Source: Paucibacter sp. DJ2R-2 (lineage in GTDB: Bacteria > Pseudomonadota > Gammaproteobacteria > Burkholderiales > Burkholderiaceae_C). Taken from it: a stretch of 64,000 nt of DNA. The position numbers and the translations under genes are program-made. A model generated the notes under the pieces. That model did no database searches. It had not been told where the DNA came from and saw only the letters and a list, made by a program, of their open reading frames with translations. Positions 6,646 through 43,259 of the stretch are shown one piece after another. The stretch is from positions 1,488,001-1,552,000 of the forward strand of contig NZ_JAJIRT010000001.1 in NCBI RefSeq assembly GCF_025717675.1, written 5' to 3'. Each line of letters begins with the position of its first letter. Position 1 is the first letter of the stretch.

Positions 6646-7653
6646 ATGCCATCTTCAATTCGCCGCACGGCCGCGGGCCCGCCCTTCACCCTGGGCCTGC
6701 TGCTGTTCGAGGGATGCATGCCGGCCGGGCTGTTCGCCGTGGCCGATCTGCTGCGCGCGGCCAATCTGCGCGCCGGCCGCGAGTTGATGCGCTGGCGCTG
6801 GCTGACGGTGGATGGCCGGCCGGTGAACGGAAGCCAGGGCGGGCCGACGCTGACGCCCGAGGGCGCCTTGGTCGACAGCGCGGATGAACTCGATGCCCTG
6901 CTGCTGCCGGGGCTGTGGGTCAGCTCGCTGGAGGGCCTGCAGCAGACCTTACAGGCGCGCCGGCCCGAGATCGCCGCCCTGCGCGCCTTGCCCACCCGTT
7001 GCGCGCTCTGGAGCTACTGCGCTGGTGTGCCCTTGCTGGCCGCCAGCGGCCGGCTGAACGGCCGGGCGGCCACGGCCACCTGGTGGCTGGCGCCGCAGCT
7101 TCAGGCCTTGTTCCCTCAGGTGGCCTGGCAGTTCGACGAGGCCTTGGTGGACAGCGACAGCACGGTCACTGCGGCCGGGGCCAACGGCTACCTTGCCCTG
7201 ATGCTGGACCAGTTGGCGCGCCGCATGGAGAGTGAGAGCCTGCGCGAGGTGCAAGAGGTCTTGATGCTGCCTCAGCCGCGCCAGCGCCACTCGGCCTTTG
7301 CCGCGGTCAGCCTGATGGCCCTGCGCGAGCCTTGGCTGCGCGAGCTCTTGCTCTGGGCCCAGCGCACCCCGGCCATGGCGCTGACCGTGCCGGCCGCCGC
7401 CGCAGCCTTGAGCCTCTCACCGCGCACCCTGAGCCGCCATGTGCAGGCCGCCACCGGCCTGCCCGCCGCCAGCTGGCTGCGTCGCGTCAAGCTGCGCCAG
7501 GTGGCCGAGCGCCTCTCGCGCGGCCCCGAGCCGCTGAAGCGCCTGGCCGAAGACCTGGGTTTCAGCACCGAGGCGGCTCTTCACCGCATGTTCAAGCAGA
7601 CCACGGGGCTCACGCCGCAGGGCTATCGGGGGCAGTATCGGCAGGGTGCCTAG
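6646..7653 (+). CDS. AraC-family regulator with DJ-1/PfpI (GATase1-like) domain
   Basis: The protein is 335 residues. Residues about 12-190 form a DJ-1/PfpI-like domain (FTLGLLLFEGCMPAGLFAVA, then ALWSYCAGVPLLAASGRL with the nucleophile-elbow Cys). Residues about 235-330 form an AraC DNA-binding domain with two helix-turn-helices (LTVPAAAAALSLSPRTLSRH and LAEDLGFSTEAALHRMFKQT). This FtrA/GlxA-like layout is usual for regulators of amine or amino-acid catabolism; the effector is unknown. It is divergent from the MBL gene. Its TAG stop lies in the left terminal repeat of the 170-bp element that follows. A degenerate copy of its last codons is found at 8888-8941. Confidence 0.88.
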   Translation: MPSSIRRTAAGPPFTLGLLLFEGCMPAGLFAVADLLRAANLRAGRELMRWRWLTVDGRPVNGSQGGPTLTPEGALVDSADELDALLLPGLWVSSLEGLQQTLQARRPEIAALRALPTRCALWSYCAGVPLLAASGRLNGRAATATWWLAPQLQALFPQVAWQFDEALVDSDSTVTAAGANGYLALMLDQLARRMESESLREVQEVLMLPQPRQRHSAFAAVSLMALREPWLRELLLWAQRTPAMALTVPAAAAALSLSPRTLSRHVQAATGLPAASWLRRVKLRQVAERLSRGPEPLKRLAEDLGFSTEAALHRMFKQTTGLTPQGYRGQYRQGA

Positions 7654-7819
7654 GGAAGCTCTGCATAAATCAGCCCGGCCCCTGCTAGCGCGGCCTCGGG
7701 CGGTCTGCGGCCTTGCACTTCTCGCCAATAGCTACGGCTATTGGCTTCAAACTGTGCCTTGCAGCCCATCCCGATCCGCACTACATGGTCTCGCCCCGAT
7801 TTACGCAGAGCTTCCCTAG
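7650..7819. mobile_element. 170-bp MITE-like element, IS5-type ends
   Basis: The element has 22-base terminal inverted repeats with one mismatch (left CTAGGGAAGCTCTGCATAAA.., right its complement with CGTAAA). It is bounded on both sides by CTAG, which fits the YTAR target duplication of the IS5 subgroup. An internal perfect 8-bp-arm hairpin, CCAATAGC-TACG-GCTATTGG, lies at 7725-7744. There is no coding capacity for a transposase, so it would depend on a transposase elsewhere. It inserted exactly at the stop codon of the AraC gene. Confidence 0.75.
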
Positions 7820-7895
7820 AGCTTCTGCGCCAATCGGCTGTCAGCCGACCCCGACCATTCGCGGGCGGGCGGGGCCTCAGTTTCTGCCGGCGAGA

Positions 7896-8774
7896 TCAAG
7901 GACCTACAGACGCCTTCGCCTTGGCGGCGTCTGCAATCTTCTGCGCCGCGGCCTGGGCGGCGGCGGCCTGCGCGCTGTTGGGTGCGGGCATCTTGATCTG
8001 GCCGCTCTTGCCGAGGGCTTGCAGGTGCTGCGGCCCGCCCGCGGAGAGCAGTCCGAAGGCGAGCAGATAGCTGAGCCGCTCCTCGTAGCTGAGGCCCCAG
8101 GCGGCGTCCGAGAGCCCCGCATTGATCAGGGTCATGTGATCGCCTGAATTGGCGTCGCGCCGGATCGCGTTGCGCAGCTCCGCTTGCAGGGCCTCGTCGG
8201 CCTGCTCGAAGCGCCGTTCGCCGGCATAGGCTACGCCCGCGCCAGCGATGCCGCCGCGCATGGCCTGCAAGGCCAGTTCTGGCAGCAGGGCCTGGTGTGG
8301 CGCCGTGACGGTCTGGCAGCGGCGCGCTTCGGTCTGTGCTTCAACGATCAGCCGCGTCATGACCTCAGGCACGGCGCCGTTGTCTCGCGCTTGCTGGTAG
8401 GCCAGCATGTTCGAGGCGTTCTGGCGGCAAGCCTGCAGCCAGGCCACAGCTTGCCATGCGGCCTTGGGGCTTGCGCCGTCACGGGCGCGATCGATGTGCG
8501 GGCCGTAGCCCTCCGAGCCAATCGGTGAAGCCTCAGGCCGGCGTGCCTGCTCCCCGGGGGCTGAGGCCGCCAAGGCAGCGTTGCCAACAGGCAAGGCCGC
8601 AGGCGCTGCGAGCACGGCTTCTGCTGCCTTGGGCGCTGTCGCCATGGCTTGTTCTTCTTTGGGCATCGGCACGGTGTCGTTGCTGGCGGGCCACCAGAAC
8701 CACGCGCACACGGCCAGAGCGCCGATGAGCACGAGGGACGTGGCGGCGCGGGTCGGAAAGGGAATCGAAGACAT
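7896..8774 (-). CDS. Hypothetical membrane-anchored periplasmic protein
   Basis: The protein is 292 residues. There is one N-terminal membrane segment (about 12-28, SLVLIGALAVCAWFWW) followed by an Ala/Pro-rich linker (about 30-90). The predicted periplasmic domain is helical with three Cys (for example LQACRQNASNML and ARRCQTV). The C-terminus is Ala/Lys-rich. I do not recognise the family and see no catalytic motif. It is transcribed opposite to its neighbours and lies between the AraC gene and a degenerate copy of that gene's 3' end, so it is probably accessory DNA. GC is lower than in the flanking core genes. Confidence 0.7.
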   Translation of the reverse strand: MSSIPFPTRAATSLVLIGALAVCAWFWWPASNDTVPMPKEEQAMATAPKAAEAVLAAPAALPVGNAALAASAPGEQARRPEASPIGSEGYGPHIDRARDGASPKAAWQAVAWLQACRQNASNMLAYQQARDNGAVPEVMTRLIVEAQTEARRCQTVTAPHQALLPELALQAMRGGIAGAGVAYAGERRFEQADEALQAELRNAIRRDANSGDHMTLINAGLSDAAWGLSYEERLSYLLAFGLLSAGGPQHLQALGKSGQIKMPAPNSAQAAAAQAAAQKIADAAKAKASVGP

Positions 8775-8887
8775 GTCCGTCCAAACGGGCTTTGTATAAG
8801 GCGCTGAGGTGCGAAGCGTAAAGGGGGAAGCTCAGGTCGGAAATTCTCACACTGGCTGGCCCGCCGTCTGTGGGCTCCGTCGCATCA

Positions 8888-8941
8888 TTCAAGCAGACCA
8901 CGTGGATGGCGCCGCAGGGGTGCCGGGGGCGGTATCAGTAG
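8888..8941 (+). pseudogene. Degenerate 3'-end copy of the AraC regulator gene
   Basis: Seventeen codons and a TAG stop read FKQTTWMAPQGCRGRYQ. They align with the last codons of the intact regulator at 6646-7653 (FKQTTGLTPQGYRGQYRQGA). Orientation is the same and nothing upstream of Phe is convincingly related, so this is an isolated tail fragment. The rest of the 8775-9122 gap holds no other recognisable feature. Confidence 0.72.
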
Positions 8942-9122
8942 GGGGTTCAGTCGATGCTTGCCCGATAAGGGTCTTGGGCCTAGGGATGAGGCGGAAGAAG
9001 ACGGCCATTGACCTGAAGCTGTCAGAGATTGAGCGGCGCAATGTTCAACTGGCGAGCGACATGCGAATATCAAGCCGCGATTCATTGCTCATCTGATGGA
9101 CCCTAGTGATCGGAGAACGCCA

Positions 9123-11663
9123 ATGCACGATCCACAGGAATTTTTTGTCACGACTGCGGCGCTGGCGCGCCTGGAAACTCGCGTGCTTGTGTCCAGTGGC
9201 GCAAGTCGCCTGCCAAGCCTGATGGATCTCGCCTGGCAGCTGCGTCAGCGAGACACGCATCGGGCCTTGGCGCTGGCTGAAGAAGCGGAGTCCGCACTGG
9301 CTGAAGCGGCCTTGACAGGCGCTGCCTTGGCGCGTGTTTTGGGCCGCCTGCTCTTGCTTCGGGCCGAAGCGAAATGGTTGTTCAACGACCTCGACGGGAG
9401 TCGAGCGCTGGTCGCGCTTGCATTGCAGGAGTTTTCCGGTCAGAGCGAGGGCTGTGTCGATTCGATCGGCTTTGCTGACGCCAAGTGGCTGCAGGCATGC
9501 TTGGCGTATGACTGCGGTCAGAGCGCGGCGGCGCGAGAAGCGCTGGAGGCCATGGCCGGCGCGGCCCGGGAGCTTGATTCCGTGCGCTTCGTCGTGGCGC
9601 AGGCCACCTTGGCACGAGACGCTGCGTTCAAGGATGTCGCAACTGCGCAGCAGATCTGGGAGGCAGAGCTGGCGCGCTTCGCGGAGATACCGCAGCCGGC
9701 AGCCGTTTTGGCCATCGAGGACTTCAAAGGCCTGGTCGCATCCTTGCGCAGTGACCATGTGGAGTCGATCCGTCACAAGTCGCTCGCCTATTCACTCGCC
9801 TTGGATACGGGGCAGCTCAGGCGCGCCATCATCACCGCCACCAATATTGGCGGCAGCTTTGGGAATCTGAACGACCATCATGCTGCGCTTGAATGGATGC
9901 AGCGTGGACTTGAATTGGCCCGAGCCTGTGGCTGGCCCGCACGGGTCGGCGGCGCGCTCATGCAGACCGCTGAAACCCAACGTTGCCTGCACCGATATGA
10001 CGCCGCCGCAGCCATGCTGCAAGAAGCGCTCAGCCTCCTGGGCCCCCTGCATGCATCGCGCAACTACGCCATCGCCTTGCACTATTTGGCGGACGTCGAG
10101 CTGGACCGCAAGCGCTACCGAAGCGCTCTGGAGAAGTTTCGGCTGCTTGAGCAACGTGCGGCTGCGCTGGACGCGAACGATCTTCTGGGCGTGGCCAAGC
10201 GGGGGCAGGCCAAAGCCTTGCTGGAACTGGGCGAGCCCGAAGCTGCCCTACAGGCGGCCGTGGAGGCCGTGGCCGGAGCCACAGCCGATCCGATCCGCAA
10301 GATCGCGGCCTTGAGGGTTCTGGCTGAGATCTACGCGCGCCATCCAGTGGCGCCGCTGGCAGGCATGACGGCGGAGAACGCCTCGCTTCATTGCTTGCAG
10401 CAGGCCTTCGAGCAAGCCGCAGCCATCGAGAACTACACCCCGCCCGGGGACCTTTTTGAAGCGATGGCCCGCGAGTACGCCAAAGTCGGCGACACGGGGC
10501 GTGCCTACCAGCTCGCCTTGCAGTCGATTGAGGTGAGAGAGAAGACCCACACCGAGGAGGCCAGCAGCCGTGCCAACGCCATGCACATCAGTCACGAAAC
10601 CGAGAAGGCGCGAGCCGAGAGCGAGCACCAGCGGCAGTTGGGTGCCGCCCATGCGGAACGTGCGGAAGCACTTGAGCGACATAACGCAACTCTAGAGCGG
10701 CTGAGCGCAGCTGGGCGACTCATCACGGGCCATCTGATCGCCGAAGGTATCTACGCGGCCTTGGATTCCCATGTCCAAGCCTTGCTGGGTGGAGAACGCC
10801 TCGAGATCTATATGCTCCTTGCGGACGGCTCCACCCTGCGGAGCGTGTACGGCGATGACTGCGGAACGGTCGTGGCGCCGCATGAGTTCGATCGGGGCGA
10901 TGCTTCAGCATTGGTGGCGCGCTGTGCCCAGGAACGCAGTGCGGTCACTCAGTCAGGCACATCAAAGGCAGGCGAGTTGTTCGGTGAACGACTGGCGGCG
11001 CCGCTGCTGGTGGGCGAACGGCTTCTCGGTGTCATGTGCATCCAATCCCAGCGCAGGTCTGCTTTCGCCGAGCACGACAAGTCCATCTTCAAGACCCTGT
11101 GTGCCTACGGGGCCGTCGCGCTGGCCAACGCGGAAACACAGGCACTGCTGATCGAGCAAAACCGGTTGCTTGAAAAGATCTCAACCTCAGACCGACTGAC
11201 CGGGCTTTCAAACCGCTTGCATCTGGATCGGGTGTTGCAGGAGGAAGGGCTGCGGAATGAGCGCTATGGCTCCGAGCTGTCCATCATCTTGCTGGATGTG
11301 GACCACTTCAAGTCGGTCAACGACACCCATGGTCATCAGGTGGGCGACTCGGTGCTTGTGGCCATGGCGGAAGTGCTGACCAAGGGATCCCGCACGGTGG
11401 ATGTCGTCGGGCGCTGGGGTGGCGAGGAGTTCTTGATCATTTGTCGCGAGACGAATTCGCACGGCGCCATGGTCCTTGCGGAACACCTGCGCACCCTGAT
11501 TGCCGCGCACGACTTTCCGGTGGTGGGCGCAAAGACAGGCAGCTTTGGGGTTGCGAGCTTGGACGAGCAAGGCGGCATCGAGGCATTGATCGCGCGAGCC
11601 GACGCTGCCTTGTACAAAGCAAAGCAATTGGGAAGAAACCAGGTGCAGTTGGGTGCCGTGTGA
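9123..11663 (+). CDS. Diguanylate cyclase with TPR-like, GAF and GGDEF domains
   Basis: The protein is about 846 residues with no signal peptide or membrane helices. The N-terminal 470 residues are helical TPR-like repeats (for example AAAMLQEALSLLG, ALHYLADVELDRKRYRSALE). A short coiled-coil (HETEKARAESEHQRQ) precedes a GAF-like domain (about 530-670) and a C-terminal GGDEF domain. The active site is GGEEF (766-770), with RTVD placed as an inhibitory I-site five residues before it. It should make cyclic-di-GMP. The start at 9123 has GGAG eight bases upstream; an in-frame ATG at 9096 lacks one. The input signal is unknown, and the TPR part suggests a protein partner. GC content is lower than in core genes nearby. 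Confidence 0.9.
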   Translation: MHDPQEFFVTTAALARLETRVLVSSGASRLPSLMDLAWQLRQRDTHRALALAEEAESALAEAALTGAALARVLGRLLLLRAEAKWLFNDLDGSRALVALALQEFSGQSEGCVDSIGFADAKWLQACLAYDCGQSAAAREALEAMAGAARELDSVRFVVAQATLARDAAFKDVATAQQIWEAELARFAEIPQPAAVLAIEDFKGLVASLRSDHVESIRHKSLAYSLALDTGQLRRAIITATNIGGSFGNLNDHHAALEWMQRGLELARACGWPARVGGALMQTAETQRCLHRYDAAAAMLQEALSLLGPLHASRNYAIALHYLADVELDRKRYRSALEKFRLLEQRAAALDANDLLGVAKRGQAKALLELGEPEAALQAAVEAVAGATADPIRKIAALRVLAEIYARHPVAPLAGMTAENASLHCLQQAFEQAAAIENYTPPGDLFEAMAREYAKVGDTGRAYQLALQSIEVREKTHTEEASSRANAMHISHETEKARAESEHQRQLGAAHAERAEALERHNATLERLSAAGRLITGHLIAEGIYAALDSHVQALLGGERLEIYMLLADGSTLRSVYGDDCGTVVAPHEFDRGDASALVARCAQERSAVTQSGTSKAGELFGERLAAPLLVGERLLGVMCIQSQRRSAFAEHDKSIFKTLCAYGAVALANAETQALLIEQNRLLEKISTSDRLTGLSNRLHLDRVLQEEGLRNERYGSELSIILLDVDHFKSVNDTHGHQVGDSVLVAMAEVLTKGSRTVDVVGRWGGEEFLIICRETNSHGAMVLAEHLRTLIAAHDFPVVGAKTGSFGVASLDEQGGIEALIARADAALYKAKQLGRNQVQLGAV

Positions 11664-11874
11664 AACCCGCTTCAGGCGGCGCGAACGGAGGTTTGGATGC
11701 CTGAATTGGCCGGCGGGCTTGCGCAAGCTTGGCGCCGGTCGACCGCGCAAGAGTGGCCAGGGGCTCGGCTCAGCGCATGGATTCGACGGCGTGAAGACCA
11801 GAAATCTGAGGCATGCCTCCGGCTCCTGCTCCGGCCTTCGGTTTCGGTGTGCCCGAGAACCATGGCTGCTGCGA

Positions 11875-11920
11875 TCAGTCCTTGTTCTTCGCCAGGCGCG
11901 CCACGATCTTTATGAGCGTG
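11875..11920 (-). pseudogene. Degenerate 3'-end copy of the endonuclease V gene
   Basis: About 46 bases encode LIKIVARLAKNKD plus a TGA stop on the minus strand. They match the last residues of the intact gene at 16987-17499 (LMKLVARLAKNKD) at roughly 90% nucleotide identity. The fragment lies 20 bases beyond the stop of the PAS-GGDEF-EAL gene. Farther upstream on its own strand the match ends abruptly. The remaining bases between 11664 and 11940 hold nothing I can support. Confidence 0.75.
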
Positions 11921-11940
11921 GCGCAGCGATTCTTTGTTCT

Positions 11941-14900
11941 TCAGGTGACTGCTTGTGCCCTGGCTTCGAGCAAGCCGCTGATGGGCTCGGGTTGGTGCAG
12001 AAGATAGCCCTGCGCATAGTTCACCCCGATGGCCTGCAGGCGATCCAACACGTCCGCCTTGTCCACGAACTCGGCCACGGTCTTCAAGCCCATCAGCCGC
12101 GCGACATCGATGAAGCAGCGAACTGCAGCGTCGTTCAGCGGGTCACTGACCAGGGTGCGGATGTACTGTCCGTCGATCTTGAGGTAGTCCACCGGCAAGG
12201 CCTTCAAATAGCCGAACGAAGAGGCGCCCGCACCAAAGTCGTCCAGCGAAACCTTCACCCCTGCTGCTCTGACCTGCTCGATGAAGACCGCCGCGTCGGC
12301 GAGGTTGGTCACTGCAACGGTCTCGGTGATTTCAAGGCACAGTTTGGAACAGACCGCGGGCCCCAGCTGGGCGAGCAGTTCGCAGGCCCAGGCATGGAAG
12401 GCCCGGTCCCCGACCGACTGGCCTGAAAGGTTGACGCTCAGGCTCTCGATGCGCTCGGGTGAAGCCAGGTTTCGCAGCCAATGGGCCGATCGGCTCAGCA
12501 CCCAACGATCCACCCGCGAGACCAAATGAAAACGTTCGGCCGCAGGCAGGAAGGAGCCAGGCTGAACCAGGGTTCCATCTGCGTTGCGCATGCGCAGCAG
12601 GACCTCGGCGTGAATGCCCTGCGCTTGCCCCTTCAGGCATTCGATGCGTTGCGCGAACAGCTCGAAGCCATCGCCATCCAGCGCGCTCTCGATTCTGGAC
12701 GTCCATTGGATTTCGTGGCTCCTGGCGCGCATGGCGGCGTCGCTGTCGAACCAGGCGTGGACTCGATTGCGACCCGCTTCTTTGGCGGCGTAGCAGGAGG
12801 TGTCCGCGGCCTGCTGGATGGCCGAGGTGCTGGACCAGCGCTTGTCCACGGGCACGAGGCCGATGCTGGTGCCAATGCGGAAGCGCCGGTCCTCGTGGAC
12901 GAAGCGGAAATCATCCATGCGGTCGCAGATCTTTTGAGCGACGCGATTCGCCTGCTCCATCGTGCAGTGTTCCAGGATGATCGCGAATTCATCACCGCCG
13001 AGGCGCGCCAGGGTGTCGCGAGTGCGCACGGCATCGGCCAGCAGCTTGCTGACCTGTTGCAGCAGCTGATCGCCGATCGCATGGCCACAGGCATCGTTGA
13101 CCAGTTTGAACTGATCCAGATCGATGTACATCAGCGCGTGATGGCTGTCGTTCTCCTGCGCTTGGCGCAGCGTGCGCAGCATGCGAGTCTCAAACTCGGC
13201 CCGATTGACCAAGCCGGTCAGCGCGTCGTGGGTGGCGCGATAGGTCATCTCGCCGCTCAAGCGCCGCTGCTCGCTGACGTCATGGAACACCAGAACGACG
13301 CCCAGCATCTCTCCCTGCGCGTTCAGGATGGGGGCGGCAGAGTCCTGGATGCCGTACTCGGTGTTGTCCCGCGAGATCAGGATCGTCTGGTGAGCCAAGC
13401 CGACGATGCGGCCTTCGGCCATGCACGCTGCCACCGGATCAGGTGCGGGTTCGCGGGTCTCTTCATTGAGGATCTGAAAGACCTGCAGCAGCGGCCGGCC
13501 CAGCGCCTCCGAGGACAGCCAGCCCGTCATCCGCTCGGCCACGGGATTGAGCCAGTTGATCAAGCCGGCGGCGTCGGTCGTGATGACCGCGTCACCAATG
13601 GACTCCAAGGTGACCCGCATCAACTCGTGCTGTTCCGCCAACTCTGCGCTGAGGCGCAGCACGACCTCGTCGCGGCGTTTGCGCTCCGTGATGTCGATCT
13701 GGATGCCGAACACCCATTCCGGGCGTCCGTTTGCCGTGCGCGTGATCAGCCGCCCGCGGTCCTCGACCCAGATCCAATGACCGTCGCGGTGGCGAAGGCG
13801 CACCTCAGCCACGTAGGCGTCACTGTGCCCCTTGAAGTGCTCGCGCAAGAGCTTTCGCGTCAGAGGCAGTTCGTCGGGGTGTGCAATCTCGGCGCGGAAC
13901 TGATTCGTCACAGCGCCGATCTCTTCGACGGACCAGCCCAGGATGGCGGCCCAGCGCGAGTTGACGATCACCTCTCCGGTCTGAACGTTCCACTCCCAGG
14001 TGCCGGCGTTCGTGCCTTCGATCAGATTGCGCAGGCGCTCGTGTTCCTTGGCGAGTTCTCGCTCGGCACGCCGACGCAGCGTCACGTTCTGCACCACGGT
14101 CAGACTGCGAACCGGTTGGCCGTCCGCGTCGCGCTCGAGGATGGCCGACATCAGCACATCCACAAGCTCGCCCGTCCGCGTCACCATCTGATACGCCACG
14201 TCGTCGCAGCGGCCGGTCGCAAAGAAACGAGGAAGCACCTCTTGCCCCGAGTGAATGCGGGACTCTTCAGTCAAAAAGTCTGCGGACGGCCGCCCGATCA
14301 CCTCGTCGCGGCGGTAGCCCAGGCAAGCCAGCCAGGCATCACTGACGTGCAGCAGGCGGCCTTGGGCATCGATCGAATGCAGCATGGCCGGCGTGGTTTC
14401 GTACATCGCCTGCAAGCGGTCTTGCGCCAGTTCCAGCGCCAGTTGCTGTTCGCGGCGCTGCGTGATTACCTGGACGGTCCCGCGCAGGCCGGTGATCTGA
14501 CCCGACATGCCGCGAACGGTTTCGCCGCGGGCCTCCAGCCAGCCGCCCTGGCCGCTGGGCTGACGGTAGCGAAGCTCCAAGGTGTAAGGCTCGCCGGTCT
14601 GCAGCGTGCGCCCCACCTGTTCGCCGAGCCTGGCGTAGTCCTGCGCTTCGTAGAGGCTGGCCTGCTCTGCGAAGCTTGGGGCGGGCGCCTTCGGGTCGCA
14701 GCCCAAGATGGCATACATCTGCGGCGACCAGACGACCCGGTCACCGTCCACACGCCAGCTCCAACTGCCGGTCTGCCCCAGTCTCTGCGCCTCTTCGAGT
14801 GCGAGCTGCGTCGACTTGAGGGCGGTGACATCACTGACCGTCGCGAAGAAGCCTCGAACCTCCCCGTTGACGAGGTCCGGTATGTAGTGAGCCCAGGTGT

Positions 14901-15564
14901 GGCCGATGCTGCCGTCGGCTTTGGTCAGTTGGCGCTCAAACTGTTGTTCCTGGCCCGCCAGCGCGCCTTCGATGTAGACCGCATTCAAGCCGAACACATG
15001 CTCGCCCAGCAGGTCTCTCAGCGACACACCCAGCAACTCATCGGGGCGCCGCCCAAACCAGTCCTCATACGCTTTGTTGGCGAAGCGGCAGCGCAGATCC
15101 TTGTCCCAGTAAGCGACCAGCCCTGGAATGGCGTCCGTGATGGCCTTGATGAAGCGCTGGCTCTCGACGAGTGCCCGATTCGTCGCTTCCGCCAGATTGC
15201 GCTGCTCGACCAGTTCGGCCTCGAAGCGGTGGCGATCTCGCGCGGCAAACAGGGTCCAGTAGTACGCCGGTTGGCCCAGATGCGCACCCAGCCTGCAATT
15301 CAACAGCACGGGCACGCGCGTCCGGTCGGCGCAGCTCAGCTGAAGGTGAATCTCCTGAATGCGCCCATCGCGCAGCAGGGTCGGCCACACATGGGTTTGC
15401 AAGAAGATGCGGCCGGCGGGCGGCAGCAGGTCTTCGATCGACGCACCGATGCGGCTCTCGCGCGAGCCGCCCGCCAGGATCAGAAGCTCAGAGTTGACGT
15501 CCAGTACGCGGCCCGTTGCAGCCGTGATCACCACGGCGCACGGCAGCTCGTCCCACGGCGTCAT
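11941..15564 (-). CDS. Multi-PAS GGDEF-EAL cyclic-di-GMP signalling protein
   Basis: This 1207-residue soluble protein contains about six PAS/PAC units across residues 1-775 (for example VVLRLSAELAEQHELMRVTL leading into VITTDAAGLINWLNPVAERM). A GGDEF domain follows with an intact GGDEF site (856-860) preceded by an RTRD I-site, then an EAL domain. The EAL signature reads EVL (987-989), while DDFGAG and KIDGQYI further on are intact, so phosphodiesterase activity remains plausible. It probably integrates several ligand or redox inputs. Its start lies 15 bases after the RsbQ-like hydrolase stop, so the two form an operon. B. subtilis RsbQ likewise partners a PAS protein (RsbP), which suggests the hydrolase supplies a ligand here. 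Confidence 0.92.
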   Translation of the reverse strand: MTPWDELPCAVVITAATGRVLDVNSELLILAGGSRESRIGASIEDLLPPAGRIFLQTHVWPTLLRDGRIQEIHLQLSCADRTRVPVLLNCRLGAHLGQPAYYWTLFAARDRHRFEAELVEQRNLAEATNRALVESQRFIKAITDAIPGLVAYWDKDLRCRFANKAYEDWFGRRPDELLGVSLRDLLGEHVFGLNAVYIEGALAGQEQQFERQLTKADGSIGHTWAHYIPDLVNGEVRGFFATVSDVTALKSTQLALEEAQRLGQTGSWSWRVDGDRVVWSPQMYAILGCDPKAPAPSFAEQASLYEAQDYARLGEQVGRTLQTGEPYTLELRYRQPSGQGGWLEARGETVRGMSGQITGLRGTVQVITQRREQQLALELAQDRLQAMYETTPAMLHSIDAQGRLLHVSDAWLACLGYRRDEVIGRPSADFLTEESRIHSGQEVLPRFFATGRCDDVAYQMVTRTGELVDVLMSAILERDADGQPVRSLTVVQNVTLRRRAERELAKEHERLRNLIEGTNAGTWEWNVQTGEVIVNSRWAAILGWSVEEIGAVTNQFRAEIAHPDELPLTRKLLREHFKGHSDAYVAEVRLRHRDGHWIWVEDRGRLITRTANGRPEWVFGIQIDITERKRRDEVVLRLSAELAEQHELMRVTLESIGDAVITTDAAGLINWLNPVAERMTGWLSSEALGRPLLQVFQILNEETREPAPDPVAACMAEGRIVGLAHQTILISRDNTEYGIQDSAAPILNAQGEMLGVVLVFHDVSEQRRLSGEMTYRATHDALTGLVNRAEFETRMLRTLRQAQENDSHHALMYIDLDQFKLVNDACGHAIGDQLLQQVSKLLADAVRTRDTLARLGGDEFAIILEHCTMEQANRVAQKICDRMDDFRFVHEDRRFRIGTSIGLVPVDKRWSSTSAIQQAADTSCYAAKEAGRNRVHAWFDSDAAMRARSHEIQWTSRIESALDGDGFELFAQRIECLKGQAQGIHAEVLLRMRNADGTLVQPGSFLPAAERFHLVSRVDRWVLSRSAHWLRNLASPERIESLSVNLSGQSVGDRAFHAWACELLAQLGPAVCSKLCLEITETVAVTNLADAAVFIEQVRAAGVKVSLDDFGAGASSFGYLKALPVDYLKIDGQYIRTLVSDPLNDAAVRCFIDVARLMGLKTVAEFVDKADVLDRLQAIGVNYAQGYLLHQPEPISGLLEARAQAVT

Positions 15565-15579
15565 GGCGAAGGCTTCATA

Positions 15580-16401
15580 TCAGGCGGCTGAGGCGGCGGT
15601 GGACGAAGCCAGGTATTCCTGCATCGCCTCGATCACCAGTGCGGGGTTGCTCATGTGTGCGCAATGACCCTCCACCTCAAGGATGCGCAAGGTGCTTGCC
15701 GGCATGTGGGCGTGCAGATACTCACCGACGCTCACGGGGGCCAGGTTGTCGCGGTGGTGCTGCAAGAGCAGCGAGGGCCGTGGCACCTTGGGCAGGTCCG
15801 CGCGGTTGTCCGCAAAGAAGGTGGCGCGCGCGAACACACGGGCCACCGCAGGGTCTGTGGAGCAAAAGCTGTCGTTCAGGGTGCTCGCCACTTCGCCTGC
15901 TCCGGAGGCGCCGGCGACGACAGGCGCCAGGTACTGGGCCCAGCCCATGTAGTTCTGGTCCATCAGGGCCAGCAAGCCCTCCAGATCTTCGCGTTCGAAG
16001 CCACCGAAATAGCCGGGCGGATCGTTCAGGAAGCAAGGCGATGGGCCCAGCAGGATGAGTTGGCTGAACAGCTCAGGCCGCGCGATCGATGCCAGCATGC
16101 CAATGCTGCAACTGACGGAATGGCCAACGAAGGTCACTCCTTCGTGCAGCCCCAGCGCGTCGCAAACCTCGACGACGTCTCGGGCGTAGCCACTCAGGTC
16201 GGTGTATCGCTGGGTGTCAAAGGCGGCACGATCCGAGTGGCCGCTGCCGACGTAATCGAACAGTACTTGACGGTGCGTGCCGGCAAAGGCGGGCGTGACG
16301 CGGCTCCACATGTCCTGGTTGCAGCCGAAGCCATGGGCATAGAGCAGCACGGGCCCGGTCTCACCGATGACCCTGACATTGTTTCGCTTCAAGATGTTCA
16401 T
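15580..16401 (-). CDS. RsbQ-like alpha/beta hydrolase
   Basis: The protein is 273 residues and starts MNILKRNNVRVIG. The catalytic Ser is in GHSVS (Ser95), Asp at HHRDN (Asp218) and His at EGHCAHM (His246), the same spacing as RsbQ / KAI2-type hydrolases. YFGGFEREDLEGLLALMDQN and LGPSPCFLNDPPGY are family-typical lid and strand segments. RsbQ-type enzymes are thought to make or modify a small hydrophobic ligand for a partner PAS domain. The neighbouring downstream gene in the operon encodes a multi-PAS GGDEF-EAL protein, matching that idea. I took the start at 16401, because the 90 extra codons of open frame upstream are not conserved-looking. Confidence 0.88.
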   Translation of the reverse strand: MNILKRNNVRVIGETGPVLLYAHGFGCNQDMWSRVTPAFAGTHRQVLFDYVGSGHSDRAAFDTQRYTDLSGYARDVVEVCDALGLHEGVTFVGHSVSCSIGMLASIARPELFSQLILLGPSPCFLNDPPGYFGGFEREDLEGLLALMDQNYMGWAQYLAPVVAGASGAGEVASTLNDSFCSTDPAVARVFARATFFADNRADLPKVPRPSLLLQHHRDNLAPVSVGEYLHAHMPASTLRILEVEGHCAHMSNPALVIEAMQEYLASSTAASAA

Positions 16402-16621
16402 GGAACGCTTCCTGGTCAAACGGGCCGGCCAAGGGCACGACCAGCAGTTGCTCGTTCTGCTCTGCAGTTCAAGGGCAGGCTGCGCGCAGTTTGAGCAAGA
16501 TTCTGCACTGGGCGGCTCGCCGGTATCAGTGAAAGAGCTCTCCTTTCCCATGCAATCAATATGAGTCGGCACGGGAGAGAGGCGCTGGCCCCGCGCCAGG
16601 GCGGCCCGGTTTTCGCCGTGC

Positions 16622-16966
16622 TCAGGCAGATCGCTCAGCGGCCCGCGGCAGAAAGCTGTCGACTTTTGCATGGAGCAGCTTGACCAGGGCCGGGTCCATG
16701 AACTTGTAGTTGTCGGGGATGTTCAGGCAGATCACACGCTTGCCGAGCAGATGGGGCTTGAAGTCACGGGCCAGTTTGTCTTTGTGGCTGCGTTCCATCA
16801 CAAAAATCAGGTCTGCCCACGCCAGCAACTCAGCTGTCAGCGGATTTTCAGCGCCATGGTTCAGGCCGGCTGAGCTGCACTCGATGCCAGGATGCTCGGA
16901 AAAGATCTGCTCGGCCGTGGGGCTGCGCCAGCGGTTCATGCTGCAGATGAAGAGAACGTGTTGCAT
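16622..16966 (-). CDS. Low-molecular-weight protein tyrosine phosphatase family protein
   Basis: This small cytoplasmic protein of 114 residues has the P-loop signature CSMNRWRS near the N-terminus (Cys8, Arg14), the CX5R(S) form of LMW phosphatases. A downstream segment IPDNYKFMDPALVKLL supplies the acidic residues seen in the short members of the family, which are about 110 residues compared with about 150 for classical LMW-PTPs. The substrate is unknown. It sits 20 bases downstream of the endonuclease V gene on the same strand and upstream of the RsbQ-like operon. It belongs to the stretch that lies between the intact and degenerate endonuclease V 3' ends. Confidence 0.85.
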   Translation of the reverse strand: MQHVLFICSMNRWRSPTAEQIFSEHPGIECSSAGLNHGAENPLTAELLAWADLIFVMERSHKDKLARDFKPHLLGKRVICLNIPDNYKFMDPALVKLLHAKVDSFLPRAAERSA

Positions 16967-16986
16967 GTTCTTGACGCCGGCCGCAG

Positions 16987-17499
16987 TCAGTCCTTGTTCT
17001 TCGCCAGGCGCGCCACGAGCTTCATCAGCGTGGGCACGCGCTTCCTGCCATGCATCGTGCGCAGGCGAGCCTTGGCCGCGCCGATGTCGATGCCCGCACA
17101 GGTGACCAGCAGCGGCTGCGTCTCCTCATCTTCCCGCATCACCTCGAACTGCGCCGTCAGGCCCGGAAGGCGTTTTTTCGAAACGCCGACGATGGGCACG
17201 CTGCCGCCCAGGGCGTGAAAGATGTGCTGGCCCAGGCCCGGCGTTTCGTCGGCATCTAGATGGACAAAGCCGTCGATCAAGATGAGCTCGGGCTCCAGCT
17301 TGTGCTCGCGCAGCAGTTGCATCACGCAGGGCAGTTCTCTCAGGTCCAGCGTTCCTCGGACCGCTGGCTCGACATGGGCGATGCGCGAGAGGTAAGTTCG
17401 GGTCGCTTCCGCCGCATCCCAGGCCTCGAAAGCCACCGCAGCAGCAGTGGCACGGGTCGCCTGCGCGTCTTCGAAATGAACAGCCACGATGAGTTTCAT
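16987..17499 (-). CDS. Endonuclease V family protein
   Basis: The protein is 170 residues, shorter than E. coli Nfi. Conserved blocks are LDLRELPCVMQLL (Glu), LILIDGFVHLD (Asp), PGLGQHIFHAL and VPIVGVSKKRLPG, as in endonuclease V enzymes that cleave DNA near deoxyinosine. The first beta strand reads MKLIVAVHFEDA. In relatives I expect an Asp in this strand (AVDVxY-like), and here it appears to be Ala6, so a metal-binding residue may be missing. The gene may therefore be inactive or use a nearby acid. A degenerate copy of its 3' end is at 11875-11920. Confidence 0.78.
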   Translation of the reverse strand: MKLIVAVHFEDAQATRATAAAVAFEAWDAAEATRTYLSRIAHVEPAVRGTLDLRELPCVMQLLREHKLEPELILIDGFVHLDADETPGLGQHIFHALGGSVPIVGVSKKRLPGLTAQFEVMREDEETQPLLVTCAGIDIGAAKARLRTMHGRKRVPTLMKLVARLAKNKD

Positions 17500-22495: not shown

Positions 22496-22753
22496 TCAGG
22501 GCTCGCTCGGTGGCTGAAGCGTCACCGCCAAGCCATACAACGCCAACAAGCCCAGCATATGCCCCACCGACACCCCGGGCTCGCCGGACTCGATCCGGGC
22601 GATGGTCTGCACATGCACGCCGAGGCGGGTGGCCGCGGTGGCCTGGCCTTCGCCGGCGGCGAGCCGGGCCTGCTTGGCGGCCGCGCCGAGGGCGCGGATG
22701 GAGGACAGCGCCTGTTCGTCGATGTCCACGGAGATGCGTTTGCCTTGTGCCAT
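22496..22753 (-). CDS. Xre/HipB-like helix-turn-helix regulator
   Basis: The protein is 85 residues and starts MAQGKRISVDIDEQ. The HTH is at about 28-80 (RLAAGEGQATAATRLGVHVQTIARIESGEPGVSVGHMLGLLALYGLAV), with the TxxxIARIExG pattern of the Xre family. There is no HipA-like or other toxin gene next to it. A second copy of its first 26 codons is found at 26153-26229, differing by one base. Upstream on the minus strand lies a helicase remnant, mirroring the order helicase-xre that the intact helicase at 26241 must once have had. Confidence 0.8.
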   Translation of the reverse strand: MAQGKRISVDIDEQALSSIRALGAAAKQARLAAGEGQATAATRLGVHVQTIARIESGEPGVSVGHMLGLLALYGLAVTLQPPSEP

Positions 22754-22766
22754 GGCGGGCATTGTC

Positions 22767-22912
22767 ACCCGGTTGAGGCCTGAGCTTTGCTACGCCAGAA
22801 GGCCACATCAATGGGCACGGCCGTGCCGCTGCGTTCGTTGACCCGCAGCGGTTTGTGAGCGCCTTCGCTGGGAGCAAGAAAGACGATCAGCTTTGCCCGC
22901 GCTCGGTTCCAG
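22767..22912 (-). pseudogene. Degenerate 3'-end copy of the UPF1-like helicase gene
   Basis: The frame reads NRARAKLIVFLAPSEGAHKP, then jumps to VNERSGTAVPIDVAFWRSKA and ends QASTG-stop. It matches the intact helicase (SRAQAKLIVFLAPGDSAHNP and INERSGAAVPIDVAFWRSKA) with an internal deletion of about 60 residues. The upstream edge, at about 22912, lies inside the final codons of the glycosyltransferase fusion gene, whose last eight or so residues are therefore read from helicase-derived DNA. Confidence 0.85.
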
Positions 22913-26136: not shown

Positions 26137-26229
26137 CTAGCCTAGGCTCATTGCGGCCGCGCCGAGGGCGCGGATGGAGGACAGCGCTTGTTCGTCGATG
26201 TCCACGGAGATGCGTTTGCCTTGTGCCAT
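26137..26229 (-). pseudogene. Truncated copy of the Xre regulator gene
   Basis: The first 26 codons (MAQGKRISVDIDEQALSSIR through LGAAA) equal those of the intact gene at 22496-22753 with one silent base change. Homology ends at 26152 and four foreign codons precede a stop. Downstream of the intact helicase, this marks the second copy of a direct repeat that flanks the glycosyltransferase fusion. Confidence 0.85.
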
Positions 26230-26240
26230 GGCGGGCATTG

Positions 26241-38195: not shown

Positions 38196-38243
38196 GTGAA
38201 CCAGTGAACCAGTGAACCAGTGAACAGGTGAACAGGTGAACAA
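38196..38243 (+). repeat. Octanucleotide array GTGAACCA/GTGAACAG, six units
   Basis: Six consecutive 8-base units are present: three GTGAACCA, two GTGAACAG and one GTGAACAA. The last unit supplies the GTG start codon used for the SgrR-like gene. Each unit also offers another GTG in a different frame. The array lies in the divergent promoter gap with the MFS gene. Confidence 0.92.
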
Positions 38244-40044: not shown

Positions 40045-40108
40045 ACGTACAGTGAGCTCATTTGCAGTTGCTGCCCCTTGCGACTGCCCTCCTTGATGGC
40101 CTAACTTG

Positions 40109-41215
40109 ATGAACCCCCAGCCTTTCAGCCCACACCGCCGCCATCTGCTGCTCGCCGGCCTGGCCGCGCTGGGCGGCAGCGCATGTGCCAGCCGTGACCT
40201 GCGCAGCTTTCGTGGCCAGGATCTCGCGCAGTTGGCGGCCCAGCAAAGCATCTGCCTGGCCGCTATCGTCACCCTGAAGGGCGGACAGGCGCAGTCGCCG
40301 CGTCTTCTGCGGGGCGGCTGCACCGCGCCTGCGCACGCCACGGATTCGGCCGATGGGCCGCCACCCTTGTTCCAGGCCGCCTCGCTGACCAAGCCCGTGG
40401 TGGCATACCTGGCCCTGCAGTTGGTGCGCGAGGGGCGCCTGGATCTGGATGCTCCGCTCTCGCGCTACCTGCCTCAGGGCTATTCCCGCAAACCGGCTGC
40501 TGCCGGCGCCGAAGCCGAACTCTCGGCCGCCACCTTGGCGCGCATCCCGTTGCGCTGCTTGCTCAACCACAGCAGCGGCCTGCCCAACTGGGGCTCATCC
40601 TGGGGCCCGCTGCGCCAGGACTTCGAGGCCGGTCAGCGCTGGCAGTATTCGGGCGAAGGCTATGTGCTGCTGCAGGCCGTGCTCAGCGCCGTCAGCGGTC
40701 AGGACTTCGAAGCCCTGATGCAGGCGCGCGTGTTCGAGCCGCTCGGCATGCGCGACTCACGCCTGCGCATGAGCCCGGCCGATGGCGAGCTGCGAGCCCG
40801 TCTGGTGCCCGGCCATGCTTGGATGGGCGGCCTGGTCGATCCCATCGAGTTCAAGCGCGCCAACGCCGCTGCGTCCCTGATCACCAGCGCCCCCGATTAC
40901 GCCCGCCTGATGTCGGCCTGGCTGCGCGATCCGGCCCTGCTGGCGCTGCTGCTCGATCGCGCGGTGTCGGTGGCTCCTGATCTCAGCCTGAGCTGGGGCC
41001 AGGGTTGGGGCCTGGAACAGGCCGAGGGCGGCCCCTACCTCTGGCAATGGGGCAACAACCCCGGCTACCGCGCTTTCGCCATGGCCTCTGTTCACAGCGG
41101 CGACGGCTTTGTGCTGCTCAGCAACAACGAACGCGGCTTGGCCCTGGCAGCGGCGCTGGGCAGCGAGCTGCTGCCGAAAGCCCGTGGGGTTTGGGGGTTT
41201 GGCGGGCTGGATTGA
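40109..41215 (+). CDS. Serine hydrolase (class C beta-lactamase-like)
   Basis: The protein is 368 residues with an export signal containing RRHLLLAGLAALGGSACAS (possible Tat type). The active-site SxxK is SLTK (Ser92-Lys95). A Tyr motif YSGEGY stands in for YxN (about 178), and the third motif area is WQWGNNPGYRAF. The family includes penicillin-binding, esterase and D-peptidase enzymes, and the substrate is unknown. The C-terminus ends KARGVWGFGGLD. A degenerate copy of the last 60 codons occurs at 43137-43259. The ATG at 40109 is preferred over the TTG one codon upstream. Confidence 0.87.
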   Translation: MNPQPFSPHRRHLLLAGLAALGGSACASRDLRSFRGQDLAQLAAQQSICLAAIVTLKGGQAQSPRLLRGGCTAPAHATDSADGPPPLFQAASLTKPVVAYLALQLVREGRLDLDAPLSRYLPQGYSRKPAAAGAEAELSAATLARIPLRCLLNHSSGLPNWGSSWGPLRQDFEAGQRWQYSGEGYVLLQAVLSAVSGQDFEALMQARVFEPLGMRDSRLRMSPADGELRARLVPGHAWMGGLVDPIEFKRANAAASLITSAPDYARLMSAWLRDPALLALLLDRAVSVAPDLSLSWGQGWGLEQAEGGPYLWQWGNNPGYRAFAMASVHSGDGFVLLSNNERGLALAAALGSELLPKARGVWGFGGLD

Positions 41216-41461
41216 GGGGCTGTGCTGGTGATCGCCGGCGCGACTTCGGTCTGATCGAAGTGTCAACGGAACTCGGTGAAGTCGATGGCCTGCAGGTCTG
41301 TGTCTACGACGGTGGCTATCCACAGTATTCTGAGATGCTCCCCGAGCATGTAGCTGCCTATGAGAGAGTCTTCAATCGAGGTGCTGAACCTCTTTGTCAA
41401 GGTGACCATTCTGCGGTCAGCTCCTTACCTTCCGCCAAGCCCACCGACCAAGTTTTCACCC
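41216..41461. other. Intergenic stretch with a possible gene fragment
   Basis: The plus frame at about 41259-41395 reads like protein (STELGEVDGLQVCVYDGGYP, then EHVAAYERVFNRGAEPL), but it has no start codon of its own that is in register with a ribosome site, and it runs on without a stop into the next gene in the wrong frame. I consider it a likely remnant of an unknown gene. No repeat or terminator was found. Confidence 0.35.
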
Positions 41462-41989
41462 ATGTTCCGTGCCCTATCGCTGCCACGCCGCGGCACCGCC
41501 CCCTGCCTCTTGCCTGGGTTCCTGCCCGCGCTTCTTCTGGTCTGTCTGTCGTCGATGCCTTTGGATGGATGGGCACAAGCGCAAGAGGCGCAGGCTGCGA
41601 AGGCAAGGCAGCCCGTGGCCGACGCCAATGCAAAGTCCGGCGCAAAGAGAGCGCTCACGCCAAAGCTCAAGGGAATCGGGCTGCCAGCCGCTGTGCTCGG
41701 GCGCCCGTACGCGAGACCGCTCTTTGCCGAGGGCGGCGAGCCGCCGCTTCGTTTCTTGCTCTTGAGCCCGGATCTGGACGGGACCGGCCTGACGCTGAGC
41801 TCCGACGGTCTGATCAGCGGCCTTCCCGTGCAGGCCGGTACCTTCAACTTCCGCGCGGCCGTACTTTCCGAAGCGGAAGGCGGCCGTGCGGCTACGCAGC
41901 ACTACCGCCTGCATATCTTGGCCACCCCGCATGCCCCGGCCCCAGCGAGCGCCGAAGCTCCAGCCCGCGCTTCAGTGGGTGTGAAGTAG
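41462..41989 (+). CDS. Secreted protein with putative Ig-like (He_PIG) domain
   Basis: The protein is 175 residues. It has a hydrophobic export segment at about 15-38 (CLLPGFLPALLLVCLSSMPL) and then an Ala/Lys linker. A single domain (about 75-155) carries the signature LSSDGLISGLPVQAGTFNF, which is typical of putative Ig / cadherin-like repeats. These domains are adhesive or structural. It is an orphan in an accessory patch between the serine hydrolase gene and the degenerate copy of its 3' end. I chose the ATG at 41462 because the export segment follows; the open frame begins earlier at 41360. Confidence 0.65.
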   Translation: MFRALSLPRRGTAPCLLPGFLPALLLVCLSSMPLDGWAQAQEAQAAKARQPVADANAKSGAKRALTPKLKGIGLPAAVLGRPYARPLFAEGGEPPLRFLLLSPDLDGTGLTLSSDGLISGLPVQAGTFNFRAAVLSEAEGGRAATQHYRLHILATPHAPAPASAEAPARASVGVK

Positions 41990-42124
41990 GCGAGCCATCG
42001 AGCCTCTGGGACTCCTCCTTCATGGCCGTGTTTGCCCGTCTGCATAGGGTCGAGCGGCCGTACGAGCAAGGCTTGTCAGGCGTTCATCTCAAGAGCTGAG
42101 CGCATGCGCCTTGCACGCGCGGGA

Positions 42125-42994
42125 TCAGGGCCGGAATTCCGAGCAGGCCGGCGCCCGCCCCAGTTGTTCGGCCTGGCGATGGCACAGCGCGGTCCAGATC
42201 CAGTTCAGGAATACCGGGTGGCGCGATTGAAAATCAAGTGAGGCTGCGACGTAGAACGGTTCGTGCCAGACGGGTGGGTCGAGTCGGTGCAGGCCAAGGT
42301 CAGACACCAGCTTTTGCGCCAGCAGATCAGGCAGCAGTATTGCCGCGGTGCGGCCCTTGCTTTGCTTGCGAATCAGGCTCTCGTTGTTGGGAGCCAGGTC
42401 GACCGGCCACCCTTGGCGCAAGGCGATTTGCTCCATCCCCGTGCCCTTGGAAACGCCCACCGCCTGTCCGGCTGGCAGGCTGAGCTTGCCATCGCGCCAG
42501 AGCACCTTGGAGGGCGGCTTCAGGTAGAGCGAAAAGCTGACCTCTCCGGCCGCCTGTTCCATGGCGGGCGCGCCGGGCCGCAAGGGCGGCAGCGCGAAGT
42601 CAGCGCTGAAAGGGTTGCTGCGCGTGATGCCTCCGAACAGATCGGCCTCGCCGCTTTTCAGGCGCATGGCGGCCCGGATATTGGGCACCCGGCTCAGCGT
42701 CAACTGGGGCGCGCAGCCACTGGTTTTGATGGCATGCCGCAGCGAGTCCACCAGCATGCCGGCGGGCTCGGGCCGTTCACGGATATCGCCCAGCAAATGC
42801 GGCTCGGCCGCCGTGTCGAGAAAGTCGACGCGGAGGCGTTCCGGGCAATCTGCGGCCGCCGGCGCTGCTCTGGCTGCAGGGCCAAGGGCCGCGCTGAAGG
42901 CGAGCAGGAACATCGACCGCCACGGCTTGTGGACCTGAAGGCGAAACCCAGCTGGGTTCCAGCCGCTGCGTTGACGGGCGTCGAAGGTGAACAT
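42125..42994 (-). CDS. Periplasmic solute-binding-like protein
   Basis: The protein is about 289 residues. After an export segment (SMFLLAFSAALGPAARAAP) it has a family-3-like binding fold: ERLRVDFLDTAAEPHL, MLVDSLRHAIKTSGCAPQLT, AAMRLKSGEADLFGGITRSN and VGVSKGTGMEQIALRQG. Cys residues are placed to form two disulphides. There are no transport partners nearby. The start is uncertain: ATGs exist at 43039, 42994 and 42913. I took 42994, since the last lacks a charged n-region and the first overlaps poorly supported sequence. It is transcribed against its neighbours in the same accessory patch as the Ig-like protein. Confidence 0.68.
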   Translation of the reverse strand: MFTFDARQRSGWNPAGFRLQVHKPWRSMFLLAFSAALGPAARAAPAAADCPERLRVDFLDTAAEPHLLGDIRERPEPAGMLVDSLRHAIKTSGCAPQLTLSRVPNIRAAMRLKSGEADLFGGITRSNPFSADFALPPLRPGAPAMEQAAGEVSFSLYLKPPSKVLWRDGKLSLPAGQAVGVSKGTGMEQIALRQGWPVDLAPNNESLIRKQSKGRTAAILLPDLLAQKLVSDLGLHRLDPPVWHEPFYVAASLDFQSRHPVFLNWIWTALCHRQAEQLGRAPACSEFRP

Positions 42995-43136
42995 GGCCGC
43001 TCGATCCTGTGTGGCTGATGTCGGTCGCAGCACGAGCATAGCCGCTCGGCCTGGACTGAGCGAGGTGATGTGCGCGCAAGCGCAAGCTCATGCCTGTTCT
43101 TCCCTCCCCTGGCTGGATTGGCGGTCGGCCCACTTT

Positions 43137-43259
43137 TGGCAATGGAGCCACACTCCGGGCTACCGAGCTTTTGCCATGACGTCTGTTTACAGCGGCGACG
43201 GCTTGGTGCTGCTGCTGCTGCAAGCCCGTGGGGTTTGGGGGTTTTGGGGGCTGGATTGA
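43137..43259 (+). pseudogene. Degenerate 3'-end copy of the serine hydrolase gene
   Basis: The frame reads WQWSHTPGYRAFAMTSVYSG, then DGLVLLLLQARGVWGFWGLD and a TGA stop. It corresponds to the intact gene's WQWGNNPGYRAFAMASVHSG ... KARGVWGFGGLD with about 22 residues deleted in the middle. Orientation is the same. Homology begins abruptly at about 43137. Short echoes of its CCACACTCCGG segment recur at 43429, so the tail region has been duplicated more than once. Confidence 0.88.

What the first reader, a model, noticed from the sequence alone, without database searches (positions are those of the whole stretch)
6646..43259. Recurrent gene - cargo - degenerate 3'-end architecture at four loci
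Four times in about 37 kb a complete gene is followed by unrelated genes and then by a decayed copy of its own 3' end in the same orientation: AraC regulator (tail at 8888-8941), endonuclease V (tail at 11875-11920), helicase (tail at 22767-22912) and serine hydrolase (tail at 43137-43259). Cargo sizes are about 1.2, 5.1, 3.3 and 1.9 kb and mostly lower in GC than the core. Integration that replaces a gene's 3' end and leaves the old end downstream is known for integrase islands, but no integrase is seen here. The process may be recombination with incoming DNA or an undescribed mobile unit that targets gene ends.
Basis: partly seen in the sequence, partly recalled or inferred. Interest (0 to 1): 0.72.

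Follow-up and report, generated by a model that had tools for sequence, protein, structure and literature searches.

The report
Gene-tail scars beside imported genes
Several genes in this bacterium are followed by extra genes and then by a broken copy of their own end, best read as the scar left when foreign DNA was taken in by recombination at a gene end: a known kind of event, here unusually clustered.

Summary
In detail: four gene-tail direct repeats lie where stated (best block per locus E 2.5e-8 to 9e-65). A scan of 924 kb of the same contig found two more loci of this layout. In all six the broken copy lies downstream of a gene's 3' end, in the same orientation; at the helicase the duplicated piece also includes the start of the next gene. 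No such locus was counted in 1.13 Mb of three relatives or in 0.41 Mb of further stretches.

Relatives show cargo-free alleles at three loci (helicase and the two new ones). At one new locus the scar's last codons and 14-17 bp beyond its stop match two relatives, while the complete gene's end does not. At AraC/endoV the nearest relative is a deletion allele, not a true empty site.

The six inserts share no ends or sequence beyond 20-24 bp. No integrase or transposase was found among proteins scanned, and no attC site in the window. Best explanation: foreign DNA entering by homology to a gene end, by single crossover of a recircularised fragment or by one-sided homologous/illegitimate recombination. 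An undescribed mobile unit is unlikely.

The parts
6646..7653 (+). L1: complete AraC-type regulator gene; duplicated tail 7591-7646
   Evidence: Pfam HTH_18 E 2.7e-19, DJ-1_PfpI just under its cut-off; repeat
7654..8887 (.). L1 insert: MITE-like element at the AraC stop, then one minus-strand gene (7896-8774, 292 aa, no Pfam, PADLOC, PHROGs or NCBIfam match)
   Evidence: relative in G012 at 81% aa
8888..8943 (+). L1 scar: decayed AraC 3' end
   Evidence: 82% to 7591-7646, E 2.5e-8
9096..11663 (+). GAF-GGDEF gene between the AraC scar and the endoV scar
   Evidence: Pfam
11875..11932 (-). L2 scar: endonuclease V 3' end
   Evidence: 90% to 16987-17044, E 3e-13
11933..16986 (-). L2 insert: PAS-GGDEF-EAL gene (11941-15564), alpha/beta hydrolase (15580-16671), low-molecular-weight phosphatase-like gene (16622-16966)
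16987..17499 (-). L2: complete endonuclease V-family gene; duplicated tail 16987-17044
   Evidence: Pfam PF04493; repeat
22677..22912 (-). L3 scar: helicase 3' end with internal deletions, contiguous with the complete small HTH gene (22496-22768)
22913..26152 (-). L3 insert: TPR / glycosyltransferase-41 / methyltransferase-domain gene (ORF 22887-25430, its last bases run into the scar)
26153..26240 (-). L3: truncated 88-bp copy of the start of the HTH gene, directly downstream of the complete helicase
   Evidence: alignment with the scar side and G011
26241..28310 (-). L3: complete helicase gene; duplicated part reaches 26574
   Evidence: Pfam AAA_11/AAA_12; 97% aa to G011
40106..41215 (+). 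L4: complete serine hydrolase (Pfam family Beta-lactamase, PF00144); duplicated tail 41026-41215
   Evidence: repeat
41216..43122 (.). L4 insert with one called minus-strand gene (42125-43039, no family found)
43123..43259 (+). L4 scar: serine hydrolase 3' end lacking an internal stretch of about 50 bp
   Evidence: 83% and 92% blocks; alignment

Best explanation
Each locus is a scar of foreign DNA that entered the chromosome through homology to a gene's 3' end. Shown: a direct duplication of the gene end brackets an insert; relatives have the gene without the insert at three loci; at one locus the scar carries the clade's own gene end. Inferred: the incoming fragment carried a homologous, usually diverged, copy of the gene end next to unrelated genes. 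It joined either (a) as a circle, by a single crossover that leaves a partial duplication, or (b) as a linear piece, with homologous recombination at one end and an illegitimate join inside the old gene end at the other. The upstream copy is complete, so the gene still works, and the leftover end decays. Scars are seen at 3' ends because such insertions leave gene and promoter intact, while most others are selected out (inference). No integrase or mobile unit is needed.
For: Repeats are direct and well beyond chance. Two further loci of the same layout lie outside the window: gene 1278107-1279210 with scar 1280399-1280459, and gene 1403966-1404550 with scar 1403023-1403257. At 1278107 none of ten relatives' stretches matches the insert; the scar's last codons and 14-17 bp beyond its stop match G011 and G002, the complete gene's end does not, and scar-like states exceed complete-copy-like states 6 to 4. 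At 1403966 the neighbouring gene lies within 0.9 kb of the gene, without the insert, in G011 and six other relatives, judged from 43-94 bp matches, and the scar shares more states with G011 (7 against 3). At the helicase G011 has helicase and HTH gene adjacent. Copy differences are 21/8/39 by codon position, p = 4e-5 against uniform. The six inserts share only 20-24 bp matches. Precedent, PMC3240628 (abstract and passages): 56 of 60 recombinants gave the duplication product, and 14 sequenced had partial duplications of 109-950 bp, ascribed to single crossover of circular, partly degraded DNA.
Against: No donor allele (same gene end followed by the same insert without a scar) was found, so the incoming fragment is inferred. 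At all four window loci the complete copy, not the scar, is closer to G011, which also fits decay of an in-place duplicate or a scar that came with the insert. Third-position enrichment is absent at AraC (4 of 11) and weak at the hydrolase (8 of 18). At 1278107 no relative matches either flank beyond those 14-17 bp apart from one weak hit (68%), because a repeat family starts there. Identity profiles along the complete genes show no clear crossover step, and the order of G011-like sites does not show the switch a single crossover predicts. Microhomology at the joins could not be tested. At AraC/endoV G011 is a deletion product.
Confidence: 0.68

Rival explanations
1. In-place duplication and decay: the gene end plus downstream DNA was tandemly duplicated in this lineage, parts were lost and one tail decayed; relatives lost the cargo by recombination between the repeats or never had it.
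For: At the four window loci the complete copy is closer to G011 than the scar is. AraC-tail differences are spread evenly over codon positions, 4/3/4.
Against: At 1278107 the scar, not the complete copy, carries the clade's own gene end. Differences at 1403966 are 3/0/9 by codon position, 9 synonymous to 2 non-synonymous codons. No second copy of insert DNA shows in the local self-comparisons.
Confidence: 0.17
2. Integrase-type islands or satellites without their own integrase: elements carrying a copy of a gene end insert at that end and restore it, leaving the old end downstream.
For: Same overall layout and same polarity at six of six loci.
Against: No integrase or other recombinase among the proteins scanned. 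Duplicated pieces are 56 to about 420 bp, diverged through most of their length and reaching far into the gene. At the helicase the duplication crosses into the next gene. No shared ends.
Confidence: 0.07
3. An undescribed mobile unit or lineage-specific process that adds DNA at gene 3' ends.
For: 6 loci in 924 kb against 0 in 1.13 Mb of relatives (p = 0.008); four within 37 kb (p = 0.003, or 0.04 if AraC and endoV count as one); six of six at 3' ends (p = 0.03).
Against: Inserts have nothing in common. Outside the window the excess is not significant (p = 0.19). The helicase duplication also contains a 5' end, so the polarity rests on five loci (two-sided p = 0.06, simple arithmetic). Selection can explain the polarity.
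Confidence: 0.06

Closest known systems
Insertion with long target duplication (Nobusato et al. 2000, Helicobacter pylori; seen only as described and cited in passages of PMC1643837 and PMC4978471)
   Same: Two related genomes compared; an insert flanked by a long direct repeat of target DNA in one of them; proposed as a route of gene mobility.
   Different: There often tied to restriction-modification genes; here the inserts are mixed metabolic, signalling and unknown genes, and the repeats are diverged gene ends.
Single crossover of recircularised, partly degraded DNA (PMC3240628, abstract and passages)
   Same: Leaves a partial direct duplication of the homologous locus (109-950 bp in 14 sequenced clones) around the inserted DNA.
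   Different: Laboratory plasmid conjugated into E. coli; here the events are old and the copies diverged.
Homology-facilitated illegitimate recombination (PMC3240628, abstract and passages)
   Same: One homologous and one illegitimate join; about kilobase-sized foreign inserts.
   Different: Usually coupled with a deletion and a 3-10 bp microhomology, neither testable here without donors.
Integrase islands at the 3' ends of genes (recalled, from no call)
   Same: Gene end restored by incoming DNA, old end left downstream.
   Different: No integrase found, no short identical core, no common ends.

Membership tests
Insertion with long target duplication | Insert flanked by a long direct repeat of target DNA | tested here: met
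   Six loci, repeats of 56 to about 420 bp
Insertion with long target duplication | Single-copy target without the insert in a related genome | tested here: met
   Met at the helicase, 1278107 and 1403966; not settled at AraC/endoV (deletion allele) and the hydrolase (other DNA follows the gene in G011 and G002)
Insertion with long target duplication | Association with restriction-modification genes (frequent, not obligatory, in the passages seen) | tested here: not met
   None among the called insert genes by Pfam or, for those scanned, PADLOC; a GmrSD-type gene lies nearby at 17846-19480, outside the inserts
Homology-facilitated illegitimate recombination | Homologous join on one side, illegitimate on the other | tested here: inconclusive
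   Layout fits; no donor found and no crossover step seen
Homology-facilitated illegitimate recombination | 3-10 bp microhomology at the illegitimate join | not testable with these tools
   Needs the donor sequence
Single crossover of circular DNA | Both neighbouring genes stay complete while both ends of the duplicated segment are truncated | tested here: met
   Helicase locus only
Single crossover of circular DNA | Switch from native-like to donor-like sites within the complete copy, the reverse in the scar | tested here: inconclusive
   Order of G011-like sites is mixed at all loci
Integrase-type island | Integrase or other recombinase in or beside the element | tested here: not met
   None among the proteins scanned, which include the called insert genes; not every ORF was scanned. 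No tRNA gene in the window
Integrase-type island | Short identical core at both junctions, common ends between elements | tested here: not met
   Copies diverged through most of their length; no shared ends
Integron cassette insertion | attC site at the insert boundary | tested here: not met
   A model built from nine attC-like repeats of G012 finds no match in the window or in the other two inserts at E <= 1 (15 sources, 310,894 bases)
Transposon / insertion sequence | Terminal inverted repeats bounding the insert | tested here: not met
   No inverted pair at E <= 1e-4 in the 124 kb around the window loci; short terminal repeats below that limit were not excluded; the MITE at the AraC stop bounds only itself

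The most novel reading that the evidence does not exclude
This lineage has a process, not seen in the relatives sampled, that repeatedly adds DNA at gene 3' ends by duplicating the end, for example a recombination bias or a trans-acting factor favouring joins in gene ends, with the 37-kb stretch as a hot spot.
Probability: 0.08. Interest if true: 0.65.

Novelty: new member of a known kind. Interest (0 to 1): 0.34.

Why it matters
Gene-tail scars are a readable record of imports that entered by homology at a gene end. Without any integrase or element marker they can show that an insertion happened, which gene end was involved and, where relatives allow, which copy is native. A genome-wide count of 3' against 5' scars across many species would measure how often such imports succeed and how selection shapes where they survive.

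Tried and rejected
Chance was rejected by E-values and the lack of inverted pairs. Most of the 82 or 85 local pairs in 924 kb have both copies in called genes (gene families, intragenic repeats) and were set aside, as was the permease pair in the window. Rows dropped from the 12 that remained: two direct pairs with both copies essentially non-coding (989931, 1295392) and two inverted pairs (971962, 1377311). Four rows of a simple repeat at 1047819 vanish with low-complexity filtering.

Rows in relatives not counted as tail scars; in G008, one short direct repeat with a copy just upstream of a gene's 5' end (1310791 / 1311086, spacing 227), six inverted rows in two places, near gene 3' ends with the same 2.4-2.5 kb spacing (they look like one repeated element), three rows of repeated gene blocks and one non-coding pair; in G011, one pair in a gene interior (35824), one non-coding pair (208197) and one pair inside a gene at the edge of the fetched stretch (161432 / 162851); in G009, five rows (four listed places and a short-spaced pair), none at a gene tail. 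(18 stretches, 405,401 bases, chosen around relatives of these loci, so not random): one direct pair in G015 (49-148 / 1238-1337, 86%) with both copies non-coding near a contig edge, left unexplained; nine attC-like pairs in G012; one 23-bp inverted pair in G014.

A shared mobile unit was rejected by comparing the six inserts. Integron cassettes were tested and not found at the six inserts; a strict motif scan also found none but recovered only 2 of 9 known sites, so it says little. Plasmid origin: no match for 6646-17500 (megablast) nor for the 292-aa protein (tblastn); other inserts were not tried there. ComEC and DprA are present, as in 10 and 11 of 14 control genomes, so they say little. 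A clean crossover step was sought and not seen. Literature: searches gave the precedents; searches gave nothing used.
Full report
WHAT WAS CHECKED. The window is G000:C1:1488001-1552000 of a 5.8-Mb genome, 66.3% GC. Its nearest relative here, G011, has a contig of the same length and content as one titled MAG Burkholderiales bacterium PBB2; other AraC relatives come from Roseateles, Mitsuaria and Pelomonas records, and two distant ones from unrelated groups. Self-comparison confirms all four gene-tail repeats, each direct, with the second copy downstream of the gene's 3' end.

ANATOMY. L1: AraC gene 6646-7653, insert 7654-8887, scar 8888-8943. L2 (minus strand): endonuclease V 16987-17499, insert 11933-16986, scar 11875-11932. 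L3 (minus): helicase 26241-28310, an 88-bp start of the next gene (26153-26240), insert 22913-26152, scar 22677-22912 running into the complete next gene, a small HTH protein at 22496-22768. L4: serine hydrolase 40106-41215, insert 41216-43122, scar 43123-43259. AraC and endoV are convergent, so L1 and L2 are the two ends of one variable interval: AraC, insert 1, AraC scar, GGDEF gene, endoV scar, insert 2, endoV. Scars L3 and L4 carry internal deletions.

HOW COMMON. In 924 kb of the same contig there are 85 local pairs at 200-10,000 bp spacing and E <= 1e-4 (82 direct, 3 inverted). After setting aside pairs with both copies in called genes, 12 rows remain; 8 are gene-tail scars, at 6 loci. 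The two new loci are a patatin-like gene at 1278107-1279210 with a desaturase gene as insert, and a DUF2939 gene at 1403966-1404550 with about 700 bp of insert without a called gene. In 1.13 Mb of G011, G008 and G009 no such locus was counted, nor in 0.41 Mb of further, non-random stretches. The difference from the 1.13 Mb has p = 0.008 with the window and p = 0.19 without it. Four of six within 37 kb has p = 0.003, or 0.04 if L1 and L2 are one event. Six of six at 3' ends has two-sided p = 0.03; but the helicase duplication also holds a 5' end, and without it five of five has p = 0.06.

RELATIVES. G011 has helicase and HTH gene adjacent, the cargo-free state. At 1278107 none of ten relatives' stretches matches the insert. 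The scar matches G011 and G002 over 93 and 90 bp (85 and 88%), to 17 and 14 bp beyond its stop, and shares their last codons, while the complete gene ends differently. So the scar looks like the native end and the complete gene's end like an import; beyond those 14-17 bp a repeat family begins and only one weak match to a relative was seen. At 1403966 the neighbouring gene lies within 0.9 kb of the gene in G011 and six other relatives (43-94 bp matches), and the scar shares more states with G011 than the complete copy does (7 against 3). At L1-L4 the complete copy is the closer to G011, which fits decay or a diverged incoming tail. G011 at AraC/endoV has only a short gap but keeps a truncated start of the phosphatase gene that follows endoV in the window (75 bp, 85%), so it is a deletion allele. 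At L4, G011 and G002 each have different DNA after the gene. In G012 a relative of the L1 insert gene begins about 30 bp beyond a broken endoV tail, with no complete endoV found in the 20 kb read: another join at an endoV end.

AGE AND SOURCE. Differences between complete tail and scar fall 21/8/39 on codon positions 1/2/3 (68 differences, 6 loci; p = 4e-5 against uniform). Third positions by locus: AraC 4 of 11, endoV 3 of 4, helicase 11 of 17, hydrolase 8 of 18, 1278107 4 of 6, 1403966 9 of 12. The helicase and 1403966 pairs look like genes that diverged while functional; AraC and the hydrolase look decayed.

MECHANISM. PMC3240628 (abstract and passages) describes two routes by which DNA with one homologous stretch enters: homologous recombination at one end with an illegitimate join at the other, usually with a deletion and 3-10 bp microhomology; and single crossover of circularised DNA, which gave partial duplications of 109-950 bp. 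The helicase locus, with both neighbouring genes complete and both ends of the duplicated segment truncated, fits the second best. The others fit either. The order of G011-like sites does not show the switch that a single crossover predicts. That selection makes 3' scars the visible ones is inference.

KNOWN OR NEW. Insertion with long target duplication was described for H. pylori in 2000 (seen as cited in passages of PMC1643837 and PMC4978471). The present loci are new members of that broad kind, without its frequent link to restriction-modification genes. No claim is made that such scars are unreported elsewhere; the searches were in one open-access library.

Noticed in passing
L160 (G012:C3:357001-377000), 1790-7954: Nine direct repeats of about 110 bp with GTT/AAC-type ends and stem-loop folds, spaced by small genes in 53% GC DNA, look like an integron cassette array (attC sites; name recalled); it ends about 1.8 kb before the broken endoV tail.
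   Followed up: partly
G011:C82:18381-19375, 22322-22431 and 111080-111183; G000:C1:1285041-1285149: Single attC-like matches (E 1e-11 to 2e-5); one lies between endoV and the HTH gene in G011, one 4.6 kb from the 1278107 scar. None in the window at E <= 1.
   Followed up: partly
window 7651-7818: A MITE-like element of about 165 bp with inverted ends (GGGAAGCTCTGC...) sits at the AraC stop codon; further copies in the contig at 814831-814998 and 1270929-1271093, in G011 (C13:125600-125764) and in G008.
   Followed up: partly
window 17846-21662: A low-GC (53-55%) block holds a GmrSD-type gene and a pair resembling candidate defence system PDC-M55.
   Followed up: no
L160, 9755-9897: In G012 a broken endonuclease V tail (two frames) lies directly upstream of a relative of the L1 insert gene.
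   Followed up: partly
G000:C1 about 1280473-1280667: A palindromic repeat family starts just after the 1278107 scar, with several further copies in the 924 kb read.
   Followed up: no
window 35819-40105: About 4.3 kb (PEP-CTERM protein, MFS transporter, SgrR-like protein) is present here but about 200 bp in G011, with no clear tail scar.
   Followed up: no
window 38249-38305: 8-bp tandem repeats of TCACCCAT type at the start of the SgrR-like gene; a related CACGATT/CACCCGTT repeat lies at G000:C1:1047819.
   Followed up: no
L040 (G015:C44), 49-148 and 1238-1337: A direct 100-bp repeat (86%) 1.1 kb apart, both copies non-coding by the gene calls, at a contig edge near the helicase relative.
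   Followed up: no
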